Shown here: positions 1,298 to 13,764 of the stretch, piece after piece
Layout: every line of letters begins with the position of its first letter
Position numbering within the stretch: position 1 is the stretch's first letter
The notes under the pieces: generated by a model
Databases searched by the model: none
The model's input: the letters and a program-made list of their open reading frames with translations, nothing else
What the model was told of the DNA's origin: nothing
Assembly: GCA_028867755.1 (NCBI GenBank)
Contig: JAGWFT010000001.1
Span: 288,727 to 352,726 of the forward strand
Reading direction: 5' to 3'
Source: Nitrososphaerota archaeon
Lineage (GTDB): Archaea; Thermoproteota; Nitrososphaeria; Nitrososphaerales; Nitrosopumilaceae
DNA length: 64,000 bases
Position numbers and translations under genes: made by a program

Positions 1298-1378
1298 ACG
1301 GTATCCATTTAGAGTGTTCGCATATTACTCTTCTTTTCTAAAACGTTAATATCGTGTACAATGAGGTCGTATTTCATT

Positions 1379-1453
1379 GGGCCGATGGTCTAGCCTGGTT
1401 AGGATACCCCCCTGACACGGGGGTGGTCGAGAGTTCAAATCTCTCTCGGCCCA
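1379..1453 (+). tRNA. tRNA-Val (anticodon GAC)
   Basis: A 75-nt cloverleaf. Acceptor GGGCCGA pairs with TCGGCCC, the anticodon arm is CCCCC-CTGACAC-GGGGG with anticodon GAC (Val), the T arm is GAGAG/CTCTC with TTCAAAT, and the discriminator is A. No CCA is encoded. The last 13 bases of this tRNA plus three flanking bases recur 11.9 kb downstream, so this gene is the attachment site of the element that follows; the tRNA itself is intact. Confidence 0.95.
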
Positions 1454-1456
1454 TTT
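1441..1456 (+). repeat. attL: 16-bp direct repeat at tRNA-Val 3' end
   Basis: CTCTCTCGGCCCATTT, covering the T-arm 3' strand and acceptor 3' strand of tRNA-Val. An identical 16-mer lies at 13320-13335. With the integrase gene immediately downstream, this is the usual pattern of a tyrosine-recombinase element inserted at a tRNA 3' end. Confidence 0.85.
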
Positions 1457-1471
1457 TATCTCACTTTACGG

Positions 1472-1481
1472 GCAACGTTGC
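1472..1481. repeat. Perfect 10-bp palindrome near attL
   Basis: GCAACGTTGC, set in a larger GC-rich context (gggcaacgttgcggccc) about 16 bp inside the left repeat. Its position between the attachment core and the integrase suggests an integrase arm site or operator; this is inference only. Confidence 0.35.
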
Positions 1482-1540
1482 GGCCCGAACTTAATCGAGA
1501 ATGAACAGGTGACTGTTTGAATCCTCTGCGCGATCAGAAA

Positions 1541-1646
1541 TTATTTTTCCAGTACAACCTTTCCGTTTGGCAGTACTGCAACAAATCTCCAACCTTCCAA
1601 GATGAGATTCTCTGTCTGCTCGCTAGATGCTACTCTCTGACCTCGG
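1541..1646 (-). pseudogene. Out-of-frame C-terminal tail of the integrase
   Basis: Just after the integrase stop, another minus frame runs without stop through ASSEQTENLILEGWRF and VAVLPNGKVVLEK to a TAA at 1541. A GW..V..LPNGK..L.K ending is typical of thaumarchaeal integrase C-termini as I remember them, and the frame joins the integrase frame near the SPRS residues if one base is gained or lost. Either a real frameshift shortened the protein or a sequencing error is present. The tail lies beyond the catalytic Tyr, so activity may survive. Confidence 0.5.
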
Positions 1647-2924
1647 ACTTGCAGATGCCATCATCTTGAGCATCTCTTGCACCTGTTCAGGGGCAGCTCT
1701 TGCAATCAAACTTTGAAACTCTTCTTTCTGTTTTTGCAGTGGATCTTTTACGGTTGTTTCCAAATCAAGCAACTCCTCACTTCTCTTGAAAGCTTCTTGC
1801 ATTTCTTTCACCAAGACTTCGGCCAAGACTCCCTTGTTTGTCGTGTACTTTGCTTCAATGGATCCCTTGTGTCCCATGAAGAAAACACGAAAGTCATGTG
1901 CAATCTTTCCCCTTGCTTCTGCGATTAGGAGCTGCGTGTCAAAGTATGCACGAAGTACATACGGTCTCCATGTGAATCGCGGTCTGAAGGTATTTCTGAC
2001 CACATTTGAGATGCGCACCGTGAGTAGGAACTTGTTTCCATCTCTTCCTTGTCTTCCGTAATTGTAATCCTTGTTTGGTGCAATCACGGCTGACTCGGAA
2101 TTGAGCATCTCGCCTTTTGCTAGTCTATCATTGAGGTATGCAAGTACTCTTTTTGCTCCTCCATCTGACAGAAAAGTAAAGTATTGGTGTCTTGCTTTTG
2201 AGAGAGTTCTGCGCACAATTATCTTTGCAGGTTCTTGTCGAAAGGTTGCAATTCCATTTGTGATAGCCAAGTCGGGCAGGTCCTTTATCAAAAGGCCGTC
2301 TGTTCCGTCATGATTTCCAAGAACTTCGGGTCTTAGTCCTGCTTTTGCCATCAGTGATATGATTGCACCTTCTCGAAGAGCTGCCCTGCTTAGTATCTCT
2401 GACATCTCGTCTGCATCAGGCACCCGTTCGTTTTCCAGTGTCGGAGTGCTGTCTGCATCTGCTATCTTTAACCTCCGTTTTATCTGGATGTCAAAGTGCC
2501 TCAGCCATGACTTCAAAGCTGTCATCATTGCCTCTATGTATTGTGGGGCATAGTCTTCCTGCTCCATCCACGTTATGTGGTCTTGGAGCAAGTCAGTTAC
2601 CGCCCTTAGATCCCTCATGCCAAGTTCTGCAAGCTCCATTGGTGTCATCTTGTGCACCTCGCAGAAGCGAATCAGCCTGCGTGATCTTGTCTCGGCAGTT
2701 ATCGGGCTTCCTCTTGCAATGTTGTCATACCATCTCTTTATGTCAGAGTTTTCAAGCAGCTTGCGCGTCTTGTTTTCTCGTTGCTTTTTGGCAGTGGTTA
2801 TGATTGTGTTGTGTGTTGTTTTTCCCATATCAGACTGCCCACTTGCTTTGCGCAAGCAGTCCTCATCGAGAATTTTAGCAATTGTATCATTATTTAGCTT
2901 TGTTACAATATTGGTAGGATCCAT
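1623..2924 (-). CDS. Tyrosine recombinase/integrase
   Basis: A 433-residue site-specific recombinase. A basic N-terminal part and a SAM-like core-binding region (about 55-150, YDNIARGSPITAETRSRRL...) precede the catalytic domain. Candidate catalytic residues are R198 (AKAGLRPEVLG), K243 (LSKARHQYF), R325 in YVLRAYF (Tyr where His is usual), H352 in FMGHKGS and nucleophile Y360 (IEAKYTTN). It sits 170 bp from tRNA-Val and faces it, inside the direct repeats, so it most likely mediates integration and excision. The reading frame is intact through the Tyr, but the extreme C-terminus seems frameshifted. Confidence 0.9.
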   Translation of the reverse strand: MDPTNIVTKLNNDTIAKILDEDCLRKASGQSDMGKTTHNTIITTAKKQRENKTRKLLENSDIKRWYDNIARGSPITAETRSRRLIRFCEVHKMTPMELAELGMRDLRAVTDLLQDHITWMEQEDYAPQYIEAMMTALKSWLRHFDIQIKRRLKIADADSTPTLENERVPDADEMSEILSRAALREGAIISLMAKAGLRPEVLGNHDGTDGLLIKDLPDLAITNGIATFRQEPAKIIVRRTLSKARHQYFTFLSDGGAKRVLAYLNDRLAKGEMLNSESAVIAPNKDYNYGRQGRDGNKFLLTVRISNVVRNTFRPRFTWRPYVLRAYFDTQLLIAEARGKIAHDFRVFFMGHKGSIEAKYTTNKGVLAEVLVKEMQEAFKRSEELLDLETTVKDPLQKQKEEFQSLIARAAPEQVQEMLKMMASASPRSESSI

Positions 2925-3156
2925 TGGTTCTACATTATTGTCTGCGCGGAGGATATATCTGAGGTCTGGCGCCCTATCCTTATATATTCAGGCACGAGGT
3001 CTAGCAGGAACTTATTTTAGGACATTGGATCTTTTGCGGGGGAGAAAATAAACTCCATTCTGTTTTTGGAGATGGCTCAGTGAGTTTTATCTGTGACACG
3101 CCCTCACTCTGTACGGTGCACCATAATATTGAAAGAGTGATTCCTGCAAAAAACTA

Positions 3157-3339
3157 TTAATCGTTTTCATCCTCAACAACCTCACAAAACTCCAAACTCT
3201 TGACCTCTTTTAGGTTGTCATACTGCCTGCACGTCAACTTTACGCGATATTCGTCTTTTTCTCCCCTAAACTTGAAACGAACAAGAATTTTCTTGCTAGA
3301 AGAGTCTGGTTGCTCATCTTTCATTGGTGGAAAGTGCAT
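3157..3339 (-). CDS. Small charged hypothetical protein
   Basis: Sixty residues, highly charged, with a basic, strand-like middle (ILVRFKFRGEKDEYRVKLTC) and an acidic tail (EVVEDEND). No known motif is recognised. It lies between the integrase and a winged-helix regulator, with the same orientation, and an AT-rich TATA-like stretch (ATAATTTTAAATG on the plus strand at about 3345) lies just upstream. A small accessory or excision-type protein of the element is possible but not shown by the sequence. Confidence 0.5.
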   Translation of the reverse strand: MHFPPMKDEQPDSSSKKILVRFKFRGEKDEYRVKLTCRQYDNLKEVKSLEFCEVVEDEND

Positions 3340-3580
3340 AACCGTATAATTTTAAATGTACCGGACAGTTGTACATAGATAACAATTAATCTCTCTATCG
3401 GTTCGAGTCAGATGTAGCTAGATTTTAAAATCATTAATTTACTATTTGTCAATGCCTGATTTTAGTAGCAATAAAATAATTGCAATGATCACATTTCCAA
3501 ATACTCATTTCTTTACCGGATGAAAAATACATCTGACCTTTTTTACACATGGAACAAACTTCCCCTGCTGTTATCGTGCA

Positions 3581-4006
3581 CTAGTCACCCCCTGATCTAA
3601 CCTTTGAGGAAATGAGATCTATCTCCGCTTTGCTGAATCTGGAAGATCGTTGTATCTCGTCTATCATTTCCATGTATTTTGAATGAGTTATTTCAGCGCC
3701 AAGTTTGGAAAGATGATCGTTGTAAATTATTCTTCCAAACATGGTATGTCTATACACGTTTTGATCTTTTGTCACAAGACCTAGCTTGACAAGATGTCGG
3801 AGCCGTGAATAATACTGCTTCTTTGAAAGTCCCATTTCTGAATGGGTGCTGGTTTGGGATTTCATCCCATCTCTTGTTGCAATAAAGATTTTCAGTGCGT
3901 CTGGTTTTGATATGAGTGATAACAAATCAATTATCTTCTGTATATGCTCGTCACTTTTGGTGGGCAGTTTACTATCATAGAAATTATAATTATCCTTACT
4001 TTCCAA
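3581..4006 (-). CDS. Winged-helix transcriptional regulator
   Basis: 141 residues with an ArsR/MarR-like winged helix: a helix pair around IQKIIDLLSLISKPDALKIF, recognition helix LSKKQYYSRLRHLVKLGLV, and the wing following it (TKDQNVYRHTMFGRIIYND). The C-terminal helix is polar and may dimerise. This layout is typical of thaumarchaeal plasmid and provirus regulators. It is divergent from the AbrB-like gene with only 71 bp between starts, so the two probably share control of one promoter region. Ligand unknown. Confidence 0.75.
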   Translation of the reverse strand: MESKDNYNFYDSKLPTKSDEHIQKIIDLLSLISKPDALKIFIATRDGMKSQTSTHSEMGLSKKQYYSRLRHLVKLGLVTKDQNVYRHTMFGRIIYNDHLSKLGAEITHSKYMEMIDEIQRSSRFSKAEIDLISSKVRSGGD

Positions 4007-4077
4007 GACATTACCTATTCTCCTTGGACACCTTAATGAAGATTCCTTTCTTTCCTTACTATCAAGGTAAGATTGTC

Positions 4078-4248
4078 ATGTCAAAGGAATCAAAACGTGA
4101 GATACTTGGAATGAGTATGATTACCTACAAGTTTCAGGTTACTGTACCAAAGAAGGTCAGAGAGAAACATAGGCTCAAGGAAGGGGACACATTGGCATTT
4201 GTAGAAGAGCATGGACGAATTTACGTTGCAAAGAGTACCGAGGTATAA
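4078..4248 (+). CDS. AbrB/SpoVT-type DNA-binding protein
   Basis: A 56-residue swapped-hairpin protein: ITYKFQVTVPKKVREKHRLKEGDTLAF is the AbrB/MazE signature (Q-VTVPK-R--L-L--GD). I place the start at the ATG at 4078 because the longer frame would overlap the divergent regulator; an alternative ATG lies at 4036. Such proteins act as transition-state regulators or as antitoxins. No toxin gene follows, so a stand-alone regulator of the element is more likely. Confidence 0.8.
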   Translation: MSKESKREILGMSMITYKFQVTVPKKVREKHRLKEGDTLAFVEEHGRIYVAKSTEV

Positions 4249-4363
4249 AGGACAATCTCAAATCTATGGCTATTGTCCCAATTTTTTATTTATGATTAAA
4301 TTTCAAAGATGTTTTAACTCCTGCCATTTCAGAATCTGACTTGAATATGTAGAGTTTTCATTT

Positions 4364-5494
4364 CTATTGAATTGACGCTGGTGCAGTTATCTCAATTTGT
4401 GACACACCATATTGAAATGGAATACTAATAATCCTGCTCTGAGACGTAGTTGTTTGATTATATCGAACTTCTGCCCCGTCTTCTAGAACAATAAATGCAC
4501 TGTCCTGACCATTAATTTTTGAATCTATCAATGCTCTTGGCAGATCCGCTATCAGCGTTCCATTTCCTGTGGTTTTCATTGATAAAATAAGTTCCTTGTT
4601 TATTATGTCAGCCTTGGCTTGTTCAATTTCACCTCCTGTAATTGTATAACTGAAAAAGTAGGTAGAGTTTTTTCCATTAATCAATAGTGAAATTTTCTCA
4701 AGTTGTGGTATTGATGTATCCAACCCGACCAGTCGAAGTATTGCAAGATCATCTGGGTTTGTGCAAGAGTTGGCGTAGGTTGGAGGATAGAAACATGTCT
4801 TGTTTGGTTTTATGACGGCATAATTGTCAACACCATTTCCAGTCACTTTCTCAATATAGATATCAGAGCCAAACCTTTGTGCTGTAAAGTTGTAGTTGCT
4901 TGAGTGTAATGGACATGGCATCCTAAATGTCTCGCATGGGTCAGGAACTCCGCTGCTTGCATTGAGTGTGACTGTCTGAATTGCATTTTCTGTGGACTGT
5001 GGAAGTGCCAAGACCCAGCCATACATCCAAGGGTGTGGTTCTGTGTCATATTGAAACTCACCTACCTTTGTAAAGGTGAAATTAAATGACTTGCCAGGAA
5101 GTAGTAACATGCTGTTGGCAGAGCGGGTTACATTCCAAAAGAGGGGATCATCATGATTGTCAGCCACGATGGTATGCGCAGCGCTTGGGGACTCGTTAGT
5201 CCACTTGACCGTATTATTTATGCCAAGAACAACCACTAGATACCTTGGCTCGTAATTTTTTCCTGAGCTTGGATCTTCAGCACCTGCTGGAATTATAATA
5301 TTTGAAATACTTGTAATGGTTTGGTTTATTTCTGTAGATGCATTTTGGATAGAGCTCGTGTTAGCCAAGGGTTGACTTGGAATCATTGGGCAGAATGTGC
5401 ACGGAGATCTGTTCTCGTGCAACGTAAAAAGAGAGATTGAGACAATCACTGCTATTGCCATCGAAGCAATTATGGCAAAAACTAGAATCTTCAT
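4364..5494 (-). CDS. Membrane-anchored cupredoxin-domain protein
   Basis: 376 residues. One N-terminal hydrophobic segment (about 3-24) anchors or exports it; then comes a plastocyanin-like domain (about 65-165) with H107 (AHTIVADN), H154 and M157 in YDTEPHPWMYG. The usual Cys ligand of type-1 copper (Y-x-C-x-x-H-P-x-M) is replaced by T151, so a blue-copper site is not expected. A roughly 200-residue beta-rich tail of unknown role follows. The gene is 2 bp downstream of the large secreted protein, so they form an operon. Ammonia-oxidising archaea use many periplasmic cupredoxins, making cargo of this type plausible. Confidence 0.8.
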   Translation of the reverse strand: MKILVFAIIASMAIAVIVSISLFTLHENRSPCTFCPMIPSQPLANTSSIQNASTEINQTITSISNIIIPAGAEDPSSGKNYEPRYLVVVLGINNTVKWTNESPSAAHTIVADNHDDPLFWNVTRSANSMLLLPGKSFNFTFTKVGEFQYDTEPHPWMYGWVLALPQSTENAIQTVTLNASSGVPDPCETFRMPCPLHSSNYNFTAQRFGSDIYIEKVTGNGVDNYAVIKPNKTCFYPPTYANSCTNPDDLAILRLVGLDTSIPQLEKISLLINGKNSTYFFSYTITGGEIEQAKADIINKELILSMKTTGNGTLIADLPRALIDSKINGQDSAFIVLEDGAEVRYNQTTTSQSRIISIPFQYGVSQIEITAPASIQ

Positions 5495-5496
5495 AT

Positions 5497-7353
5497 CTAT
5501 TTCACCGGGATGTATCCTACCTTGAATCCAGCAGTGCTGTCAATGTGAAAATCATACGGTTCTGCAGGACAGAACCATTGGTTATTATTTTCAAGCCACG
5601 GAAAATCATTTTGCTTTAGTGTGGAATTTTCATATCCTACGGCAAAAGGCATTGGCACGCAAAATATTGTCAGTCCATAAAGTCCTTTGTGATTTCCTGT
5701 TTTTATCCAGTAAACGATAGTTGAGTCACCTGCAGAAATTGTATTGTTGCCAGAATCATTCCAAGCTGATACATCTTTGGCACTCTGGGTCAGATTATTT
5801 GCCTCTGAGATTCCAATCCCTATTCGTACTGGAAAATCATTTAGGTTGTGATACCTTACACAAATCTTTCCAGTAGAGTTTAGAGGCATGTAGAGTGTTG
5901 GTATTCCTTGGTACTTTTGCGGGTATGGATCTTGACATGGCTCAAACGAGGCAGGCAAGGTCTGGTTTCTTTGATTTGTCACTGTGAAACTTGCTTGTGC
6001 TGTTTTGTTGTCAAGCAAGACTGTCATCGTATAGGTACCAGTCTTGTTGATAACTGGGCTTCCCGCAGGTCCTGCTACAACGTAAGTAAAAGTGGAAAAG
6101 GCCAGCTGTGGATCTTCAGAGTGTACTATACAACAGTTGTTCCAGACCTGTGTACCATTTGAATCAAGAATTGTCACATCGGGAATGATGCCGCCGAATT
6201 CATATCCTGTATATCTTACTGTTGCGTTGATTGGTTGGCCAGCAAAATAATTTTGTTGCAATCCAACTATACTCATATTCTTGATGAGAGGCTCGGGATG
6301 GGTTGTCCCAAGAGCCCATCCCCACATAATGAGCTTGGTTGCAGCAAGTGGATGTACACAAGCCGGAGTAAAATCTTCTGCCTTGAGAATCAACTGAAAA
6401 CCTCCCCTACAATGAAAATCCTGAGGCAGTGTACCTGGAAACATTTTGCGTTGTTGTAAAGGACTTAGAGATTGCAGATATTGATGGATATCAAAATTAA
6501 GAATAAAGTGCGATGTCGTATAGTTCTCTCCGTATTGCGCTAATACCGTATAGTTGCCAGAATAGTAAAATGCGGCTGGTGGGACTGTCCATGCATAGCT
6601 CTCATTTGACCAGAGCGGGAAAAGTTTGGAAATTACTTCTTGATGATGAGAGTCAAATATCTTGATTACCAGTGGCAATTTGCTGTTGGGGTTGGCGATA
6701 TGACCTGAAATTATTATTTTATCTTCGGCGGTGTAATTTTGAAGATTAGTGGTCACGGAGATTGCAGGAGAGGTATTGGGAGTCGTTTGATTTTCTGCAA
6801 GTATGGCAATCTCCAGAGGCTTTGACCATATTGATTCCATATGAGCGGGTATCCCTTCAGAATTAATACTTGCAATAGAATAGACCGTATAATTTCCAGG
6901 CTTGTCAAGTACGATTTCAGGAAATCCACCATACCCTGATACCCACCGACCAGTGGTAGACATGTCAGGCTTGAGAGACTCGTCGATACCTACTGTGGCA
7001 GTGGCGTCTGGCCAAATAAAAGAGGTGTCGCCATTTTGATCAAGAACCTCTATCTCAAAAAGTGGTTCGCCGTGTGTTATTGTTGCAACATTGTTTCCTG
7101 CATTTATCAAATGTGGTATAACTGAAAATTTTTCACCTGTTTTGTATTCTGTTTTGTTTATTTCCTGAGTCACTATTAGCATGGTCCCATTGTATGCAAG
7201 CCCAGTTTTTATGGCATTATCACGTTCCTGCAATATTTCTTTTGCAGTCTGTTGTGCAAAAACACTTTGCGATACAATTATGGAAGATGCAATAAGAATT
7301 ACAATTATTGAGAGGTGTAGAGTTTTCACGCTTGATATGGACGGTACAGACAT
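5497..7353 (-). CDS. Large secreted beta-sandwich protein
   Basis: 618 residues with a signal peptide (about 10-34, ending SVFAQQ). The rest reads as several Ig/CARDB-like beta-sandwich repeats: YKTGEKFSVIPHLINAGN, YTAEDKIIISGHIANPNS and YFAGQPINATVRYTGYEFGG are similar strand patterns. Many NxS/T sequons and paired cysteines point to a glycosylated surface protein. It ends 2 bp before the cupredoxin gene, so both are probably co-transcribed as envelope cargo of the element. No enzymatic motif was seen. Confidence 0.7.
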   Translation of the reverse strand: MSVPSISSVKTLHLSIIVILIASSIIVSQSVFAQQTAKEILQERDNAIKTGLAYNGTMLIVTQEINKTEYKTGEKFSVIPHLINAGNNVATITHGEPLFEIEVLDQNGDTSFIWPDATATVGIDESLKPDMSTTGRWVSGYGGFPEIVLDKPGNYTVYSIASINSEGIPAHMESIWSKPLEIAILAENQTTPNTSPAISVTTNLQNYTAEDKIIISGHIANPNSKLPLVIKIFDSHHQEVISKLFPLWSNESYAWTVPPAAFYYSGNYTVLAQYGENYTTSHFILNFDIHQYLQSLSPLQQRKMFPGTLPQDFHCRGGFQLILKAEDFTPACVHPLAATKLIMWGWALGTTHPEPLIKNMSIVGLQQNYFAGQPINATVRYTGYEFGGIIPDVTILDSNGTQVWNNCCIVHSEDPQLAFSTFTYVVAGPAGSPVINKTGTYTMTVLLDNKTAQASFTVTNQRNQTLPASFEPCQDPYPQKYQGIPTLYMPLNSTGKICVRYHNLNDFPVRIGIGISEANNLTQSAKDVSAWNDSGNNTISAGDSTIVYWIKTGNHKGLYGLTIFCVPMPFAVGYENSTLKQNDFPWLENNNQWFCPAEPYDFHIDSTAGFKVGYIPVK

Positions 7354-7426
7354 GGTTTAAAAAAGTGGCGTAGAATTGCAAATATCAACGGCATAGCTTA
7401 ACTAGTGCATATCATTTTTTATTGTC

Positions 7427-7588
7427 ATGAAAAAGAAATTTGTGTATCTTATTGTTGCTGTGATAGCTGTAGTGTTATCTTTTGTCCCTGTTTTTCCATA
7501 TCTTCCCCCATGCCCTCCTGCTACAGAGCCTTGCATGACACCGATGGAACATGTGTCACTTGTAGGGTACGTCTTCTCATACCTATAA
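7427..7588 (+). CDS. Small secreted or membrane protein (53 aa)
   Basis: ATG at 7427 opens a 53-residue frame with a basic start (MKKKF), a hydrophobic helix (VYLIVAVIAVVLSFVPVFPYL), then a Cys/Pro-rich stretch (PPCPPATEPCMTPMEHV). The hydrophobic leader plus conserved-looking CP motifs make it more credible than the overlapping Cys-rich frame starting at 7405. It is divergent from the large secreted protein. Function unknown; perhaps a small metal-binding or redox envelope peptide. Confidence 0.5.
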   Translation: MKKKFVYLIVAVIAVVLSFVPVFPYLPPCPPATEPCMTPMEHVSLVGYVFSYL

Positions 7589-7756
7589 AAAACTGATCTA
7601 AATAGAATTCAAATCCCTACATTGTAATTAATGAATTTAGTTATGTGATTTTAACTATCCATTCCTAGTCTGGTAAGGCCCATCTACTGTATCAGATAAT
7701 CTCGACCCCACAAAACACGGCTAGATTATAATACCAAATCCCTGTATCTTGACTGG

Positions 7757-8158
7757 ATGCCTGACAAATTTTCGAGAGAGACGAGAAGCAAGATAATGTC
7801 ATCCATAAGATCCAAGAACACAAAGCCTGAAACCACAGTAAGGCATCTTTTGTGGTCAATGGGAAAGCGTTATCGTATACATGACAAATCAATTTTTGGC
7901 ACCCCTGACATATCCAGTAAAAAAAACAGGGTTGCAGTTTTCATTGATGGTTGTTTCTGGCACGGCTGCAAATTGTGTTATCAAAAACCAAGAACCAACA
8001 CAGAGTTTTGGAGCAACAAAATTGAAACCAACAGGAAACGAAGGAAATCTGTCATGTCTAGACTGAAAAAGGATGGATGGCGTGTGCTAGAGATATGGGA
8101 ACACGATGTTGAATCAAAACCCCAGAATGTGGTCAGGCGAATATCGAAGATGCTTTAA
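7757..8158 (+). CDS. vsr: Vsr-type DNA mismatch/short-patch endonuclease
   Basis: 133 residues, full length for Vsr. Motifs: IMSSIRSKNTKPE (13-25), catalytic D51 in GTPDI, H69 in FIDGCFWHGC, Cys71/Cys74, and FWSNKIETNRKR (84-95). Classical Vsr nicks at T:G mismatches made by deamination of 5-methylcytosine; relatives also serve as nucleases in restriction systems. It converges with the C5-methyltransferase, whose stop codon is 5 bp away, which supports a functional pair. No other restriction nuclease is visible in the element. Confidence 0.9.
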   Translation: MPDKFSRETRSKIMSSIRSKNTKPETTVRHLLWSMGKRYRIHDKSIFGTPDISSKKNRVAVFIDGCFWHGCKLCYQKPRTNTEFWSNKIETNRKRRKSVMSRLKKDGWRVLEIWEHDVESKPQNVVRRISKML

Positions 8159-8163
8159 AAAAA

Positions 8164-9363
8164 TCAATATGACGTTTTTACCCAACGGCTAGATTTCACT
8201 TCCAGTTTTATTTCCAACAGTTCTTTTATGGATTCTGCTATTGCTTTTGCAAACAGTGGCGGAACGGCGTTGCCTATCTGTATGAATTGTTTTGTGCGTG
8301 GTCCTTCGAAAACATAATTGTCACCAAATGACTGGAGTCGTGCAGCTTCTCTGGGTGTAATGCTTCTGTTTTGTTTTGTGTCCGGATGAATATGCATCAG
8401 TCCGTCCTTTGACAGGTGTGCGATTATTGTGGACGATGGCCTGTTCCATGGCATCTTCTTGAACCTGTCCTGGAAGATGTCCTTTCTGTAAGGATTGTAT
8501 CTTTTTGGCAGATCCTTTATCCATTGTCCTGGCTTCAGCAGATGAAAGATTTCAAGATCCCTCTCGTTGTGTGTCCTTGCCACATGACCGTGTACACCAT
8601 CAGATCCTTGTCTCATTTTTGTTTGATAATGGCTTTGATTTTCAGTGTACGGATAAGCAGAAAATTCTCTTCCTTCCCCCGCATGTATCTTCGGAAGATC
8701 AGACAATGCTGAACATACAGTCTCATATGGTTTTCTCCCTTTTGGATCTTCCTTCAGTGGATCATAATGTGAATGCTTCAACACAGGATTTTGTAGACCC
8801 AGCTTGTTTCCTATTGCCAACACCCTTGTCCTGAATTGCGGTACGCCAAAATTTGCAACTTCCTCAAGATAAAAGGTTACATCGTATTTTCCCGCGAGCT
8901 CGTTTTCTATCTCATCTTTGATAGTACCGTCACTCATGGAGAACATTCTTGGCACGTTTTCCATCACAAAAAATTTTGGTTGCAGCCCTTTTACCAATCT
9001 GAAAAATTCTCGGTATAATGTGTTCAGTGGGTGTCTGCGATTGGTTGATCTTCCCATTGATCTGAGTTTTGCACAGGCAATTGTGCTAAACGCTTGACAA
9101 GGAGGCCCACCTGCAAGAACATCTATTTCTCTGCTATTGATTTCCCTTAACACATTATCAACTGTAAGATTTTCGATCTTATACTCAACTGCATTACCAT
9201 GATATTTTCTGAAAGTATCTAATGACCATTTGTCACAGTCAACTCCAAGAAGAGTCTCAAAACCTGCTTGCTTGAATCCCTCTGAGAGACCACCTGCACC
9301 ACAAAAGAGATCTACTACCGTATGTTTTTGCTTCAATTCTATATGATTACAATTTGAGATCAC
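8164..9363 (-). CDS. dcm: DNA (cytosine-5-)-methyltransferase
   Basis: 399 residues with ordered C5-MTase motifs: I (VVDLFCGAGGLSEGF, 16-30), IV with catalytic Cys89 (GGPPCQAFS), VI (MENVPRMF, from residue 134), VIII (QFRTR, 176-180), a variable target-recognition region, and X (IQIGNAVPP). It methylates cytosine C5 in an unknown target site. The start is GTG at 9363, preceded by GGTGA, and both sit inside a perfect inverted repeat, so expression may be autoregulated. Its neighbours are Vsr (convergent) and, upstream on the same strand, a response regulator and GHKL kinase. Confidence 0.93.
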   Translation of the reverse strand: MISNCNHIELKQKHTVVDLFCGAGGLSEGFKQAGFETLLGVDCDKWSLDTFRKYHGNAVEYKIENLTVDNVLREINSREIDVLAGGPPCQAFSTIACAKLRSMGRSTNRRHPLNTLYREFFRLVKGLQPKFFVMENVPRMFSMSDGTIKDEIENELAGKYDVTFYLEEVANFGVPQFRTRVLAIGNKLGLQNPVLKHSHYDPLKEDPKGRKPYETVCSALSDLPKIHAGEGREFSAYPYTENQSHYQTKMRQGSDGVHGHVARTHNERDLEIFHLLKPGQWIKDLPKRYNPYRKDIFQDRFKKMPWNRPSSTIIAHLSKDGLMHIHPDTKQNRSITPREAARLQSFGDNYVFEGPRTKQFIQIGNAVPPLFAKAIAESIKELLEIKLEVKSSRWVKTSY

Positions 9364-9380
9364 ATGTCACCATGTGATCT
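9357..9380. promoter_or_regulatory. 10-bp inverted repeat over the dcm start
   Basis: AGATCACATG (9357-9366) and CATGTGATCT (9371-9380) are perfect reverse complements with a 4-nt spacer. The repeat covers the GTG start and Shine-Dalgarno-like GGTGA of the methyltransferase. It could be an operator or an RNA hairpin blocking translation; both are inference. Confidence 0.6.
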
Positions 9381-9420
9381 AAATTAGACAAACTGATAAA
9401 AATTAGAGCCATGACCTAAT

Positions 9421-10032
9421 TTATTCCCCAAGTTGTCGAAAATTATGAGGATGTCCATCCTCAGGAATCATATTTCTGTTACAAATTCCAGTCATAAGAT
9501 CCTTCAACTCATTTTCCTCATCATAGGTAAATTTTTTCTTAAACACATCCCCTAACCATTCTCTGATTTTCCTTGTAGACCCATTGTAGGTAAGATATTC
9601 ATTTTCTAATCCTAAGGATGTGATTTTTTTAGTTACGGGATAAAATCTCTTCTTTCTGTCACTCAAGATTTTTAGTGCTGCTGATTCTAGTCTCACATAC
9701 AGTTTTTTAGGTTGACCTGTTTTGTGAACTATTTCCTCGATTCCAATTTCATTAAGGATATTCTGTGTTTTTTTATTCACTTCAAACGCTGTGAATACAA
9801 TCCCCGGAACAGACTTCCCCTTGAAAAACAATTCCCTGAAAACTTCATACCCTTCCTTGCCTTTGGCCAGTTTTATGTCAGCCACAATGAAGTCAATTCC
9901 ACCCTTAAGTAATTCTTTGATGGCCTGCTTAACCGTAGTTACGCCAACTACTTCAAATTTGGTTATTGTCATATTCAAAATCCTGAGCATAGATCCATCA
10001 TTTTCTACTATGAGCATTTTTCTCTTATCCAC
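9421..10032 (-). CDS. Response regulator (receiver domain, novel C-terminus)
   Basis: 203 residues. The receiver domain (about 5-120) keeps acidic E10/D12 (LIVEND), phospho-acceptor D52 (IVADIKL), T81 (GIVFTAF) and K104 (EIVHKTG). The remaining 80 residues (LTYNGSTRKIREWLGDVFKK...) do not match a DNA-binding output domain I recognise and end with GHPHNFRQLGE. The gene overlaps the upstream GHKL/histidine kinase by 8 bp, so they are translationally coupled and almost certainly cognate partners. Output unknown: it may act on the neighbouring methyltransferase or nuclease rather than on a promoter. Confidence 0.85.
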   Translation of the reverse strand: MDKRKMLIVENDGSMLRILNMTITKFEVVGVTTVKQAIKELLKGGIDFIVADIKLAKGKEGYEVFRELFFKGKSVPGIVFTAFEVNKKTQNILNEIGIEEIVHKTGQPKKLYVRLESAALKILSDRKKRFYPVTKKITSLGLENEYLTYNGSTRKIREWLGDVFKKKFTYDEENELKDLMTGICNRNMIPEDGHPHNFRQLGE

Positions 10033-12184
10033 GTTTGATTTTCTCCCATGGAATGGTAATCACAAATGTAGCACCACGTCCAAGTTCACCATCTTTAAGA
10101 ATTTCAACCTTGCCTCCGTATGATTCCACTGTCTCTTGAACTATACTGAGTCCAAGTCCGGTGCCATTTTCATATTCTGAGAATAATGGTCTAAAAATTT
10201 TGTGTCGGATTGAATCACTCACCCCCTTTCCATTATCACTAAATTTCATCTTTATTCCATGTGATTCTTTGGTGCAAGTTACTTTGATCATTTTTTTATT
10301 AGTTTTTTCAAGGGCCTTGACAGAGTTCGTTAGCATGTTAAGCGCTATAGATAAGAAATCTGCCTTGTTCATGAAGATGGTAAGATCCTTTGGATATGCT
10401 TTTGCTTTCGCATCTATCTCATAGTCCAACACAGTTACAAAATCATCAAGTATGTCATTCATTTCCTTTTCAATCTTAATTGGTTCTTTTATTCTAGATT
10501 CCACTGAATGACCTACTCCTTGAACAAATTTTCTTATGAACCATGTAAAGTGAGACACAGTTACAATTTTATCATCCAAATCTTTTATCACGGCATCTAA
10601 TATTGAGTCGTTGATGCCAAGTTTTTTAAGATATTTTGATATGGCATCTGGGGTGGATTCTATTCCAGCAATAATGTTGAAAATTTCGTGGTAAGAAGCA
10701 GCTGACGAAATTCCCAAAGATGCAAGATTTCTATATGTACGTTCCCGGTTTTCTAGGTCTTGATATTCCTCTGTCAAGTCATCTCTATAACCAGTAAACA
10801 CTTTGCTGATTTTGTTCAGAGATTTTTGAATGACCTTTTTATCAGTTTTATCGAGTTGTGGATTTTCCTCAACCAACTCAGAGAGATATTTAATTTCTGA
10901 TTCTAGAACCCGTTCATGTTTTACTCTGGTTCCTTTTTCTTGCTGTCGTTTGCGTTCTTCACTCCTAAAGTAAAAGAATTCTGTAAATATGTCATTTACA
11001 AAATAAACCATGTTAAGATAAGCATCATTTTCTACAAGCTTTTCCCTAGTAGTAGTATCTATCAATAACGGATTTTCTTCTCTCGATATTTCGACAAAAC
11101 CTATTACTTGAGAATTATAGACCCTGAGGGTAGATTGAACTCTTTGGGCCTCTAAACTAAGCCAATCATTACCCAATGCACCGTATGGACTAACCCAAAA
11201 GCCATCTCGGTATATCTTAATGCCATGGTGATCTCTAACAATAGACGTTATCTCACTCGATTTCAGAACATCGCGATAATATTCATCCCAGGGATCATAT
11301 CTAGTTGAATGAGGAAAGAAGTAGAATACCACCTTGCATAGGCCGAAAGATTTCCAAGGAAGCCCGTTTGATTTCATTATGTCTTCATATGATAATGATC
11401 TTTTCTCTACAAATTTTCCTTCTCTCCAAATTGTCATGGTGGTGTGATTAAAACCTGAGGGAATGGCAGCACTTACTTTGTAGGGAGCTTTCTTAAACAT
11501 TAGACTTTCAATTTCTGAAGTAACACCTGAACCAAATTCGTTAGCAATTATCTTTACTCCAAATTTTTCTTTTTGGGATCGTCTCAATTCAGGTGGAAGC
11601 AAAATAGAAGCTATAGACAAACGTAGTTTTTGGATTTTCTTTTCGTCCCATGGTTCACGAATATTTTCAAGCATTATTGTTGTGCCATGTTCTGAAATAT
11701 TATCGCGTTGAGGATTGATTTCTACTGGATTTTTTATTTGAGTAAATTCCACTGTTTCATCCTCGTATTTGTCCCAATCAATATGAAGGGTTATTTCTTC
11801 TGTGCTAGATACCGGCCGCGAAATTATTGTTGTTTTCTTTGATAATTTTTCTGTTGAAAATCTTCCAATACCTTTGTTTCCAAGTACACGACGACCCATA
11901 TTGGTTATTTTTTGTTTTTCTTTTCCATAGGTGCCGATCACCATCCATTTATTTTCGATGTCAACATAGGTCATTCCTTCACCATTATCTTTCAGGATGA
12001 TTCTTGCATTGATTCCACCACCTTCAAGTAGATTTTCAAATGTAATTGTTAATTCAGTTGCATCTGCATCATATGCATTTTTTACCAACTCAAACAGGGC
12101 TGCAGTATCACTAGAAACTGATTCACGTCCCAAAAGACGTGCCACTTTGCTGGTAAATTTAAAACTTAGACTCTCAGGCTCCAT
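10025..12184 (-). CDS. Dual GHKL protein: MORC/Hsp90-like ATPase fused to histidine kinase
   Basis: 719 residues with two ATP sites. The N-terminal MORC/MutL/Hsp90-like module has E32LVKNAYDADA, D66NGEGM and G102NKGIGRF, followed by a transducer-like domain with KIYRDGFWVSP (323-333). A coiled-coil-like linker (about 405-480) leads to a DHp helix with H499 in SAASYHEIFNIIAG and a kinase catalytic domain: N616 (ALNMLTNSVKAL), D650NGKG, F664 and G674TGLGLS. No membrane segment, so it senses a cytoplasmic cue. MORC/MutL-like ATPases are known partners of restriction-modification genes (Iyer, Abhiman and Aravind 2008, cited from memory); here the fused kinase has its own receiver gene. Confidence 0.85.
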   Translation of the reverse strand: MEPESLSFKFTSKVARLLGRESVSSDTAALFELVKNAYDADATELTITFENLLEGGGINARIILKDNGEGMTYVDIENKWMVIGTYGKEKQKITNMGRRVLGNKGIGRFSTEKLSKKTTIISRPVSSTEEITLHIDWDKYEDETVEFTQIKNPVEINPQRDNISEHGTTIMLENIREPWDEKKIQKLRLSIASILLPPELRRSQKEKFGVKIIANEFGSGVTSEIESLMFKKAPYKVSAAIPSGFNHTTMTIWREGKFVEKRSLSYEDIMKSNGLPWKSFGLCKVVFYFFPHSTRYDPWDEYYRDVLKSSEITSIVRDHHGIKIYRDGFWVSPYGALGNDWLSLEAQRVQSTLRVYNSQVIGFVEISREENPLLIDTTTREKLVENDAYLNMVYFVNDIFTEFFYFRSEERKRQQEKGTRVKHERVLESEIKYLSELVEENPQLDKTDKKVIQKSLNKISKVFTGYRDDLTEEYQDLENRERTYRNLASLGISSAASYHEIFNIIAGIESTPDAISKYLKKLGINDSILDAVIKDLDDKIVTVSHFTWFIRKFVQGVGHSVESRIKEPIKIEKEMNDILDDFVTVLDYEIDAKAKAYPKDLTIFMNKADFLSIALNMLTNSVKALEKTNKKMIKVTCTKESHGIKMKFSDNGKGVSDSIRHKIFRPLFSEYENGTGLGLSIVQETVESYGGKVEILKDGELGRGATFVITIPWEKIKRG

Positions 12185-12460
12185 CTTGTTCCTGCGATTT
12201 CTTACAGTTTCTTGTTTTTAACCTTAGTTAGAAAGGTTTGAATCTGTTGGGACACAATATAATTTGATCTAACTAGAGATCCAAGCGATCATTTGTTAGA
12301 AATTGTATAATGTAGTTTTCATCAGGCTCCCATGACAATCAACAAATCTGTACCGATTTCCACCTTCCAATCTCTGACACTATGACATGATTATACCTAT
12401 TCGATTCAACTAATGATGAGCCCCAACATGACCCAACACATGAAAACCTGCAAAATATGG

Positions 12461-12592
12461 TTACCTGCCACGTTTTGCCTTGGTAAAATAATCCACCATG
12501 CACTCTTTATGTGCATATTCGGCAGTATTGCACGAGGTTTGACAAAACCAGCAAATGCCTTTGCGAAATTTCGGTGACTCGACCTCTCGCAC
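12461..12592 (-). CDS. Possible small zinc-finger protein (43 aa)
   Basis: A GTG at 12592 opens a 43-residue frame containing FRKGICWFCQTS, then HKECMVDYFTKAKRGR before TAA at 12461. The C-x2-C ... H-x2-C spacing and the basic tail look like a treble-clef/zinc-ribbon peptide of phages and plasmids. The same frame continues upstream of the GTG to a stop 14 codons earlier, without an ATG. It lies between the kinase and the iteron field. The protein pattern is convincing, the start is not. Confidence 0.38.
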   Translation of the reverse strand: MREVESPKFRKGICWFCQTSCNTAEYAHKECMVDYFTKAKRGR

Positions 12593-13319
12593 TTGATAAT
12601 ATTTACGACATTCTTGCCCTTAACTCTGATCGTAGGATAGGATCGTAGAGTACTGGTGCTATAACCCACTGGATTATCTGGCCTTCAAAACTATAGGTAG
12701 TTTTTTCCAGTTACTGATTAGTACACTTACGATCATTCAGCTATCAATAGCAGTTTTTTCAATCAGTCAACTACTATAGATAGCAGTCAGTAGCAGTAGT
12801 TGTTTTGACTATAGGTAGCAGTCAGTAGCAGTAGTTGTTTTGACTGCTATAGGTAGCAGTCAGTAGCAGTCGACTACCTATGGACCTTGACTGCTATAGG
12901 TAGTTTTCAAATGACTGCTACTCGTGATTTTTGTCAAGTTGGCAAAAACTGGTGATGACTACCTATAGTCATTTAGTTGATAGAAAAACTAGCAGTTTTT
13001 TCAATCAGTCAACTACTATAGGTAGTAGTTATCAATACTGGTATCGATACAAATGGTCTGGGTTTTGAAAAACTATAGGTAGTTTTTTCAATTCATGTTA
13101 TCGATATAGGTGTATTACGCAGATGCGTAGTATGCGCGTACTCTTACACCTTGCGTACTACGAGTATGTTTTTTCTGCATTTTTTAATGCATAGAAAGAT
13201 TAACAAATGTGTAGTTGTATAGATATAGTAAGATTTCTGAAAAAAAAGAAATGGGGTAGGAACTGCGAAGCTGTTCCAATAGCTTACTGCCAGTGTCTAC
13301 AACCTCTGTGTCAGTCGAC
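12593..13319. repeat. Iteron-like repeat field at the element's right end
   Basis: No gene seen here. The decamer CTATAGGTAG occurs perfectly seven times: plus strand at 12691, 12809, 12847, 12894, 13016 and 13073, and inverted at 12959. Near copies lie at 12774 and 12873. Units from 12781, 12816 and 12854 form tandem repeats with periods 35 and 38 bp (TAGCAGTCAGTAGCAG core), and a 30-bp block at 12749-12778 recurs exactly at 12991-13020. Dense iterons next to an attachment site suggest a replication origin, partition site or recombination/regulator-binding region. Confidence 0.75.
13126..13192. repeat. Inverted repeats next to attR
   Basis: CGTAGTA (13126-13132) pairs with TACTACG (13156-13162), bracketing alternating GCGC-rich sequence. 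Shortly after, TGCAT (13177-13181) pairs with ATGCA (13188-13192) around a T-run. These hairpins close the iteron field and precede the right repeat; they may be part of an origin or of integrase arm sites. Confidence 0.4.
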
Positions 13320-13335
13320 CTCTCTCGGCCCATTT
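13320..13335 (+). repeat. attR: 16-bp copy of the tRNA-Val 3' end
   Basis: Identical to 1441-1456. Only the tRNA 3' strand is present, with no D or anticodon arm upstream, so this is the displaced end of the original locus and not a tRNA gene. The chromosomal flavin-type gene begins 30 bp further on, as it would have followed the tRNA before insertion. Confidence 0.85.
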
Positions 13336-13365
13336 CTTTTTATTTTAATGTATGTAACACAAGGC

Positions 13366-13764
13366 ATGGTAAAATTTACTCCAAAAGAGATCAAGTTTCT
13401 AAAAGCAAATGAAGGATGCAGGGTTGCAACAAGCTTAGATGACAATCCGCACATAGCTCCTGTGACATATTACTTTGAGGATGGATACTTTTATTTTGCA
13501 ACCGATTATGACACAAAAAAGTATGCGAATCTAAAAAAGAACAACAAAATTGCAATATCTGTTGACATTTACAATCCTGGAAAACACAAGGGAGTGGTGG
13601 TACAGGGCTTGACGACCTTCATTGAGAAGGGAAGTGAGTTCAAGCGACTGTATGACATATTTTACAAAAATTATGCATGGGTGAGAGCCATACCATGGAA
13701 AGAAGAGGAAGCTCCTTTTGTGAAAATTGTTCCTAAAAAGAAAGCAAGCTGGGGTATAGGCTAG
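13366..13764 (+). CDS. Pyridoxamine 5'-phosphate oxidase-like flavin-binding protein
   Basis: 132 residues from the ATG at 13366 (an ATG six codons upstream is possible; the longer frame would run back across attR). The split-barrel pattern is clear: FLKANEGCRVATSLDDNPHIAPVTYYFEDGYFYFAT, then KYANLKKNNKIAISVDI. This fold binds FMN, F420 or haem. F420- or FMN-dependent oxidoreductase or binding protein is all that can be said. It is the first chromosomal gene past attR and converges with the LEA14-like gene with a 4-bp tail overlap. Confidence 0.78.
   Translation: MVKFTPKEIKFLKANEGCRVATSLDDNPHIAPVTYYFEDGYFYFATDYDTKKYANLKKNNKIAISVDIYNPGKHKGVVVQGLTTFIEKGSEFKRLYDIFYKNYAWVRAIPWKEEEAPFVKIVPKKKASWGIG

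What the first reader, a model, noticed from the sequence alone, without database searches (positions are those of the whole stretch)
7757..12184. Vsr nuclease - C5 methyltransferase - receiver - MORC/HK fusion: possible new defence system
Vsr and dcm converge 5 bp apart. A receiver protein and a cytoplasmic protein bearing a MORC/MutL-type ATPase plus a true histidine kinase are coupled next to them on one mobile element. MORC/MutL-like ATPases with methyltransferases and nucleases are known from restriction-type islands (Iyer, Abhiman and Aravind 2008, from memory); adding a phosphorelay with a dedicated receiver is unusual and suggests that infection or foreign DNA sensing is converted into a phosphotransfer signal.
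Basis: partly seen in the sequence, partly recalled or inferred. Interest (0 to 1): 0.82.

Follow-up and report, generated by a model that had tools for sequence, protein, structure and literature searches.

The report
MORC-kinase relay linked to DNA methylation
A mobile DNA element in an archaeon carries a DNA-marking enzyme, a repair-type nuclease and a two-protein relay whose sensor fuses a DNA-handling ATPase to a histidine kinase; the relay recurs beside DNA-modification genes across bacteria and archaea, was described from bacteria in 2021, and its function has not been tested as far as I could find.

Summary
All four genes are intact: vsr 7757-8158 (+), C5 methyltransferase 8164-9363 (-), receiver 9421-10032 (-), and a 719-residue protein 10025-12184 (-) with a MORC-like GHKL+S5 half and a complete DHp/CA histidine kinase (H499). 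They are cargo of an 11.9-kb integrative element at tRNA-Val (16-bp att repeats; empty sites in relatives).

The module is real. Among 102 loci found by kinase similarity alone, a receiver gene directly follows in at least 79 and a DNA methyltransferase lies within 6.5 kb in 75. A C5 enzyme is present in only 41 and Vsr in only 17, so dcm and vsr are optional partners.

It is not new in kind. The architecture, with C5 methyltransferases and Vsr, was published for bacteria in 2021 (HEF_HK/Response_reg_2), and paraMORC-Dcm-Vsr linkage in 2008. The window proteins fail both 2021 Pfam models. They form an archaeal clade with two close relatives: G174 (vsr-dcm-HK-RR) and G222 (dcm-HK-RR). No restriction nuclease is recognisable in the window.

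Best reading: a modification-linked, phosphorelay-controlled anti-foreign-DNA module, with Vsr most likely the methyltransferase's mismatch-repair companion. The output step is unknown. Nothing here demonstrates defence.

The parts
1378..1454 (+). tRNA-Val(gac), integration target of the element that carries the module
   Evidence: ARAGORN; same tRNA at the same locus in seven relatives scanned
1441..1456 (+). attL: CTCTCTCGGCCCATTT (3' end of tRNA-Val plus 2 nt)
   Evidence: 16-bp exact direct repeat
1623..2924 (-). integrase-like protein (433 aa) of the element
   Evidence: phrog_1 integrase E=0.0025; 1e-224 and 4e-222 relatives beside the same tRNA-Val in G006 and G019
7757..8158 (+). Vsr-type endonuclease, 133 aa; D51 and H69 conserved
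   Evidence: PF03852 5e-31, TIGR00632 above cut-off, PADLOC Vsr; E. coli Vsr structure 1cw0 E=5e-22; alignment A6
8164..9363 (-). C5-cytosine DNA methyltransferase, 399 aa (GTG start); PPCQ at 87, ENV at 135
   Evidence: PF00145 2e-56; PADLOC MTase_II 4e-100, DrmMII 3e-92; motifs
9421..10032 (-). response regulator: REC domain (about 1-115; E10, D12, D52, T81, K104) plus about 88-aa helical tail without a recognised output domain
   Evidence: PF00072 5e-11; AlphaFold2 model; PDB fold search
10025..12184 (-). 719-aa paraMORC-histidine kinase: MORC-like GHKL+S5 ATPase (about 1-380), long helices with DHp (H499), CA ATPase (about 567-719)
   Evidence: PF13589, PF02518; AlphaFold2 mean pLDDT 80.7; PDB folds MORC2/MORC3 and HK853
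13320..13335 (+). attR: second copy of CTCTCTCGGCCCATTT, 12 bp before the chromosomal PNPOx-type gene (13348-13764)
   Evidence: in L217 (G018) the PNPOx-type gene follows tRNA-Val directly

Best explanation
A DNA-modification-linked, phosphorelay-controlled module against foreign DNA, carried as cargo by a tRNA-Val integrative element. The C5 methyltransferase marks the cell's own DNA. The 719-residue protein is a soluble sensor: its MORC/paraMORC ATPase half engages DNA (inferred: foreign or unmarked DNA, or a DNA structure made during invasion) and closes as an ATP-dependent dimer. That sets the attached DHp/CA half to autophosphorylate on H499 and pass the phosphate to D52 of the adjacent receiver, which carries the signal to an output. 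In related subtypes the likely output is a linked enzyme: HNH, MBL-fold, HerA-NurA, LlaMI-type or type I restriction enzyme, or a caspase-like protein; a kinase of the same family also sits inside DISARM loci without a receiver. In this archaeal subtype no restriction enzyme is linked, so the output is either the paraMORC half itself acting on DNA or an unlinked host factor bound by phospho-receiver. Vsr most likely repairs T:G mismatches left when the methyltransferase's 5-methylcytosines deaminate. Shown by sequence or model: the genes, domains, conserved residues, recurrence, mobility and MORC-like fold. Inferred: the sensed ligand, phosphotransfer, defence role and output.
For: Complete catalytic motifs in both ATPase halves, H499 and D52. 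Receiver gene immediately downstream in at least 79 of 102 loci and a DNA MTase within 6.5 kb in 75, with steep decay over distance. Closest relatives keep dcm-HK-RR, with or without vsr, in another genus (L234, L235). The kinase tree splits by linked enzyme: N6+HNH, N6+MBL, N6+unknown ~250-aa protein, C5+caspase-like, DISARM, C5 with or without Vsr. DISARM DrmA/B/C and a DrmMII-type MTase flank the kinase in L039. Fold match of residues about 1-440 to MORC2/MORC3 and of the C-terminal part to HK853, including its complexes with RR468. Published over-representation of R-M genes around such pairs (PMC8011034). A paraMORC3-type GHKL-nuclease protein restricts phage and needs its ATPase (PMC12137116). 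Patchy distribution, 16 of 400 genomes of the order, and element mobility.
Against: No restriction nuclease is recognisable in the window, in G174 or in G222. No member of this family was found to be tested experimentally. 20 of the 80 public-genome loci show no detected MTase or Vsr within 6.5 kb under the stricter cut-off (some contigs are short, and my query set was limited). Kinase and C5 MTase distances do not correlate (Mantel 0.09, p=0.20), so a specific sensing of one MTase's mark by one kinase is not indicated. The receiver tail has no known output domain and only moderate model confidence.
Confidence: 0.5

Rival explanations
1. Degenerate or solitary modification system with a regulator: the restriction enzyme was lost (or never present), the MTase and Vsr persist as an orphan methylation-repair pair, and the kinase-receiver pair tunes methylation or gene expression rather than attacking DNA.
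For: No nuclease other than Vsr within the element; REase present in other archaeal relatives (LlaMI-type in L246 and L247); the receiver has a short helical tail, no nuclease or known output domain.
Against: Three relatives in this clade keep the same minimal set (window, G174, G222), which argues against recent random loss; catalytic residues intact in all four window genes; no recognised DNA-binding output domain in the receiver.
Confidence: 0.2
2. Vsr is the effector: phospho-receiver switches the Vsr-fold nuclease from mismatch nicking to cutting foreign DNA, giving a phosphorylation-gated restriction system.
For: Vsr is the only linked nuclease in the window and G174; Vsr stayed with the kinase (64% identity window/G174) while the MTase was exchanged (25%); over 20 loci Vsr distances follow HK (Mantel 0.35, p=0.0025) more than C5 (0.19, p=0.037).
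Against: G222 has dcm-HK-RR with no Vsr in the 20 kb read; most kinase loci have none (17 of 102 do); Vsr coexists with REase (L246, L247) or HerA-NurA (L106); an HhH-GPD glycosylase occurs in the corresponding place in L040 (PF00730) and, by sequence resemblance, L122, which fits a mismatch-repair role; in L033, L246 and L247 Vsr tracks the C5 gene.
Confidence: 0.12
3. Maintenance or exclusion function for the element itself: the module protects its carrier element by excluding rival elements at the tRNA-Val site or by post-segregational killing, like selfish R-M systems.
For: Cargo of an integrative element at a site used by the same integrase family with different cargo in G006 and G019; a related module lies beside a solo Cas1 in G222.
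Against: No toxin or REase to kill segregants is seen; in G006 the HK-RR-vsr-dcm genes lie about 0.5 Mb from the tRNA-Val element, so linkage to this element type is not fixed.
Confidence: 0.13
4. Chance neighbours on a mobile element with no common function.
For: Mobile elements accumulate unrelated cargo; the plastocyanin-like gene (4364-5494) and the 618-aa gene (5497-7353) look unrelated.
Against: Recurrence in many phyla and sharp distance decay, overlapping HK/RR genes, and published linkage of 91.6% for the related pair.
Confidence: 0.03

Closest known systems
HEF_HK / Response_reg_2 two-component-like elements (Bellieny-Rabelo et al. 2021, PMC8011034; PF19191, PF19192)
   Same: HATPase_c_3 + DHp + HATPase_c protein next to a receiver protein, beside C5 MTases, with Vsr in 20 genera
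   Different: Window kinase and receiver match neither Pfam model; only 2 of 49 broad-family kinases match PF19191 and 1 of 25 long receivers PF19192; the published set is bacterial, this one archaeal; Vsr is convergent with dcm here rather than mostly downstream of the receiver gene
paraMORC ATPases of restriction-modification islands (Iyer, Abhiman and Aravind 2008, PMC2292703)
   Same: N-terminal GHKL+S5 module with MORC-like fold, linked to cytosine methylase and Vsr-type nuclease
   Different: C-terminal histidine kinase and dedicated receiver; no superfamily II helicase found in the window element
DISARM (class with DrmMII)
   Same: C5 MTase resembles DrmMII models; a kinase of this family lies between DrmMII-type MTase and DrmA in L039, and next to DrmA in L061 and L034
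   Different: No DrmA/DrmB/DrmC in the window; the DISARM-linked kinases have no adjacent receiver
BbrUII/HgiDII-type restriction enzymes (NF050001)
   Same: N-terminal GHKL domain, matched at residues 15-192
   Different: 87.7 bits against a cut-off of 550; no nuclease part, kinase instead
DUF4145-fused paraMORC with C5 MTase and Vsr or HhH-GPD-like glycosylase (L058, L083, L122)
   Same: 28-30% identical over the alignment (33-37% in the best tblastn segment); same C5 plus mismatch-repair company
   Different: C-terminus is DUF4145-like; no kinase half and no receiver: the output half is exchangeable
GHKL-Shedu / VcSduA (paraMORC3, PMC12137116)
   Same: GHKL ATPase needed for direct phage restriction (experimental)
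   Different: Output is a fused PD-(D/E)XK nuclease, no phosphorelay

Membership tests
HEF_HK/Response_reg_2 system (2021) | HATPase_c_3 N-terminal and HATPase_c C-terminal in one protein | tested here: met
HEF_HK/Response_reg_2 system (2021) | PF19191 HEF_HK domain | tested here: not met
   no match at E<=0.1; genome scan places only sub-threshold matches elsewhere in the genome
HEF_HK/Response_reg_2 system (2021) | PF19192 Response_reg_2 in the adjacent protein | tested here: not met
   PF00072 instead; no PF19192 match in the genome up to E=10
HEF_HK/Response_reg_2 system (2021) | Linkage to C5 MTase and often Vsr | tested here: met
   window genes; family-wide counts
paraMORC/MORC-like ATPase | GHKL ATPase motifs followed by an S5-like domain | tested here: met
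   E32, N36, D66, G70, G102-G107 conserved; fold match to MORC2/MORC3 over about 470 columns
Two-component system | Phospho-acceptor His in a DHp, N/G boxes, receiver Asp with acidic pair, Thr, Lys | tested here: met
   HK853 fold match
Two-component system | Phosphotransfer H499 to D52 | not testable with these tools
   needs biochemistry
Type II restriction-modification system | Cognate restriction endonuclease | tested here: not met
   no REase family among the element's proteins searched; only Vsr
Type II restriction-modification system | DNA methyltransferase | tested here: met
   PF00145 2e-56 with motifs; activity not testable
Vsr very-short-patch repair endonuclease | Family model above cut-off, catalytic Asp/His | tested here: met
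   TIGR00632 148.8 over 97.85; D51, H69 invariant in A6
DISARM | DrmA and DrmB | tested here: not met
   absent from the module and no large ORF of that kind in the element; present in L039
BbrUII/HgiDII restriction enzyme | NF050001 above cut-off | tested here: not met
   87.7 bits against 550

The most novel reading that the evidence does not exclude
A nuclease-free immune relay: methyl-marked self DNA is ignored, while the paraMORC-kinase traps or compacts unmarked invading DNA and reports it by phosphotransfer to a receiver that acts on a host target. More broadly, one phosphorelay front end (paraMORC-HK plus receiver) has been plugged into at least six alternative effectors (HNH, MBL-fold, caspase-like protein, HerA-NurA, LlaMI-type or type I restriction enzyme, Z1-AIPR), and its kinase also into DISARM.
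Probability: 0.15. Interest if true: 0.85.

Novelty: new variant of a known kind. Interest (0 to 1): 0.46.

Why it matters
If the relay gates DNA attack, it would be a clear case of classical two-component signalling used inside a restriction-type immune system, with a MORC-like ATPase as the sensor. The effector genes beside it vary by kinase clade, which makes the idea directly testable by mutating one histidine or one aspartate. The archaeal four-gene set, lacking any recognised restriction enzyme, is a compact version for asking what the relay itself does. The MORC-like part also bears on where eukaryotic MORC proteins come from.

Tried and rejected
Searches with the receiver or its tail in viral contigs and plasmids gave nothing; the tail search in the order led to the best relatives. 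No PDB sequence relative for the caspase-like third protein. PADLOC has only weak matches for kinase and receiver (REase_II 2e-10 over the GHKL part; PDC-M60B 5e-5), so it is not a catalogued PADLOC system. Paper searches for a characterised defence system of this architecture returned only the 2021 and 2008 works plus indirect hits. I considered calling it a HEF_HK member and rejected that because both defining domain models fail. I considered chance co-location and rejected it for HK-RR-MTase on distance decay. Mantel results on 20 loci are suggestive only: small, taxonomically uneven sample.
Full report
OBSERVATION. The four genes are present exactly as described and are intact. Pfam, NCBIfam and PADLOC identify a Vsr endonuclease, a C5 methyltransferase, a receiver protein and a protein with HATPase_c_3 at its N-terminus and HATPase_c at its C-terminus. 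HK and RR overlap by 8 nt and dcm follows 57 nt later on the same strand; vsr is convergent with dcm, stops 5 bp apart. Receiver residues E10, D12, D52, T81, K104 and kinase residues H499, N616/N620, D650, G674/G676/G678 are present. Over 108 homologues E32 and N36 of the first ATPase are invariant and H499 is His in 104.

STRUCTURE. The AlphaFold2 model of the 719-residue protein (mean pLDDT 80.7) shows a GHKL fold, an S5-like region, long helices spanning the DHp with H499 (lower confidence, about 52-70), and a second ATPase domain. Foldseek matches residues up to about 440 to MORC2 and MORC3 ATPase structures (also Hsp90) and the C-terminal part to HK853, including complexes with its receiver RR468. 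The receiver model (mean pLDDT 73.9) is a REC domain followed by a helical tail of moderate confidence with no recognised output fold.

MOBILE ELEMENT. A 16-bp repeat of the tRNA-Val 3' end lies at 1441-1456 and again at 13320-13335. An integrase-like gene sits next to the tRNA. In many congeners the two flanking chromosomal genes are about 1.7 kb apart instead of 13.5 kb. In L217 (G018), for example, tRNA-Val is followed directly by the PNPOx-type gene that lies beyond attR in the window. G006 and G019 carry the same integrase family at the same tRNA with other cargo; G006 also shows a second tRNA 3'-end copy. The element is therefore 1457-13335 and the four genes are its cargo. It resembles the 'cryptic integrated elements' described for Thaumarchaeota, which can carry R-M genes and a CheY-like receiver (PMC6563490); that the host is a thaumarchaeon rests on one relative, G019, whose contig equals a public Thaumarchaeota record (L117).

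RELATIVES AND NEIGHBOURS. I searched with the kinase only, in relatives, plasmids, phages, public genomes and viral contigs. In 102 loci annotated with purpose-built profiles, the next gene is a receiver in at least 79, a C5 MTase lies within 6.5 kb in 41, an N6/N4-type MTase in 36, either in 75, Vsr in 17, and C5+Vsr+receiver in 12. These are lower bounds, since my profiles came from a limited query set and many contigs are short; one locus (L117) duplicates L040. In the 80 public-genome loci density falls steeply with distance: C5 82, 24, 4 and receivers 198, 0, 2 per 1000 ORFs in three bins out to 12 kb. The association is not chance.

SUBTYPES. A kinase tree groups loci by linked enzymes: N6 MTase with HNH nuclease (PtuB-like), N6 with MBL-fold protein, N6 with a ~250-aa unknown protein, C5 with a ~200-aa protein bearing an invariant His-Gly and Cys (caspase-like dyad), DISARM loci (DrmA/B/C and a DrmMII-type MTase), and C5 with or without Vsr. 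Some carry HerA and a NurA-like protein (L040, L075, L106; NurA by sequence resemblance only), LlaMI-type REases (L246, L247), Z1/AIPR genes, or type I R-M. The window belongs to an archaeal clade with G174 and G222 (HK 42-45% identical). G174 has vsr-dcm-HK-RR on one strand; G222 has dcm-HK-RR beside a solo Cas1. Kinases at this similarity occur in 16 of 400 genomes sampled in the order.

WHAT MOVES WITH WHAT. In this clade Vsr is 64% identical between window and G174 while the C5 enzymes are only 25% identical; the window C5 enzyme is instead 59% identical to one in G019 next to a kinase of another clade. Over 20 loci Vsr distances correlate with HK (0.35, p=0.0025) more than with C5 (0.19, p=0.037), and HK with C5 not at all (0.09, p=0.20). 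The MTase thus appears exchangeable. The sample is small and uneven, so I do not lean on it. Against Vsr as effector: it is absent from most loci, coexists with dedicated nucleases, and an HhH-GPD glycosylase takes its place in L040 and apparently in L122. That fits repair of deaminated 5-methylcytosine.

THE ATPASE HALF WITHOUT THE KINASE. L058 (Micrarchaeota), L083 (Pacearchaeota) and L122 (Aminicenantes) carry paraMORC proteins whose C-terminus is DUF4145-like instead of a kinase (PF13643 matches two of the members scanned), next to a C5 MTase and Vsr or a glycosylase-like protein, with no receiver. The ATPase half is therefore the shared part and the output half is exchangeable.

KNOWN OR NEW. 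The 2021 paper described the two-ATPase kinase plus receiver, its linkage to C5 MTases and Vsr, and its relation to paraMORC in bacteria. The 2008 paper described paraMORC with cytosine methylases and Vsr. The window proteins do not match the Pfam domains defined in 2021, and only 2 of 49 kinases of the wider family do. So the window is the same kind of system but not a member of that domain family: an archaeal variant with canonical REC and no recognised restriction enzyme. I found no experimental study of any member.

CONCLUSION. The most likely function is a methylation-linked phosphorelay that controls action on foreign DNA; the output step in this subtype is open, and defence itself is inferred.

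Noticed in passing
L039 1102-12139, L061, L034: A paraMORC-histidine kinase lies next to DrmA in three DISARM-like loci (in L039 between a DrmMII-type MTase and DrmA-DrmB-DrmC), with no receiver gene: a possible kinase-bearing DISARM variant.
   Followed up: partly
L063, L066, L069, L070, L077, L078, L091 (third gene; L103 similar position): A ~200-aa protein with invariant His-Gly and Cys (caspase-like dyad) follows the receiver in the C5-linked clade; no Pfam or PADLOC hit worth naming and no PDB sequence hit.
   Followed up: partly
L035 and L036 (G058, 2.663-2.697 Mb): Tandem array of at least four paraMORC-kinase homologues with ~330-400-aa companion genes in one archaeal genome.
   Followed up: no
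L235 9815-15179: dcm-HK-RR module directly beside a solo Cas1 (PF01867 5e-61), casposon-like setting.
   Followed up: partly
L040, L075, L106: HerA plus a NurA-like protein between the C5 MTase and the paraMORC-kinase in an archaeon and two Bacteroidota.
   Followed up: partly
window 1441-13335; L218, L219: The tRNA-Val site is an integration hotspot in the genus; the same integrase family brings different cargo (plastocyanin-like and large secreted proteins recur).
   Followed up: yes
L048, L053, L068, L084, L110, L115, L116, L119, L124: An MBL-fold protein (LmuA/PDC-M48B-like by PADLOC in L068) follows the receiver in bacterial loci, several with an N6 MTase upstream.
   Followed up: partly
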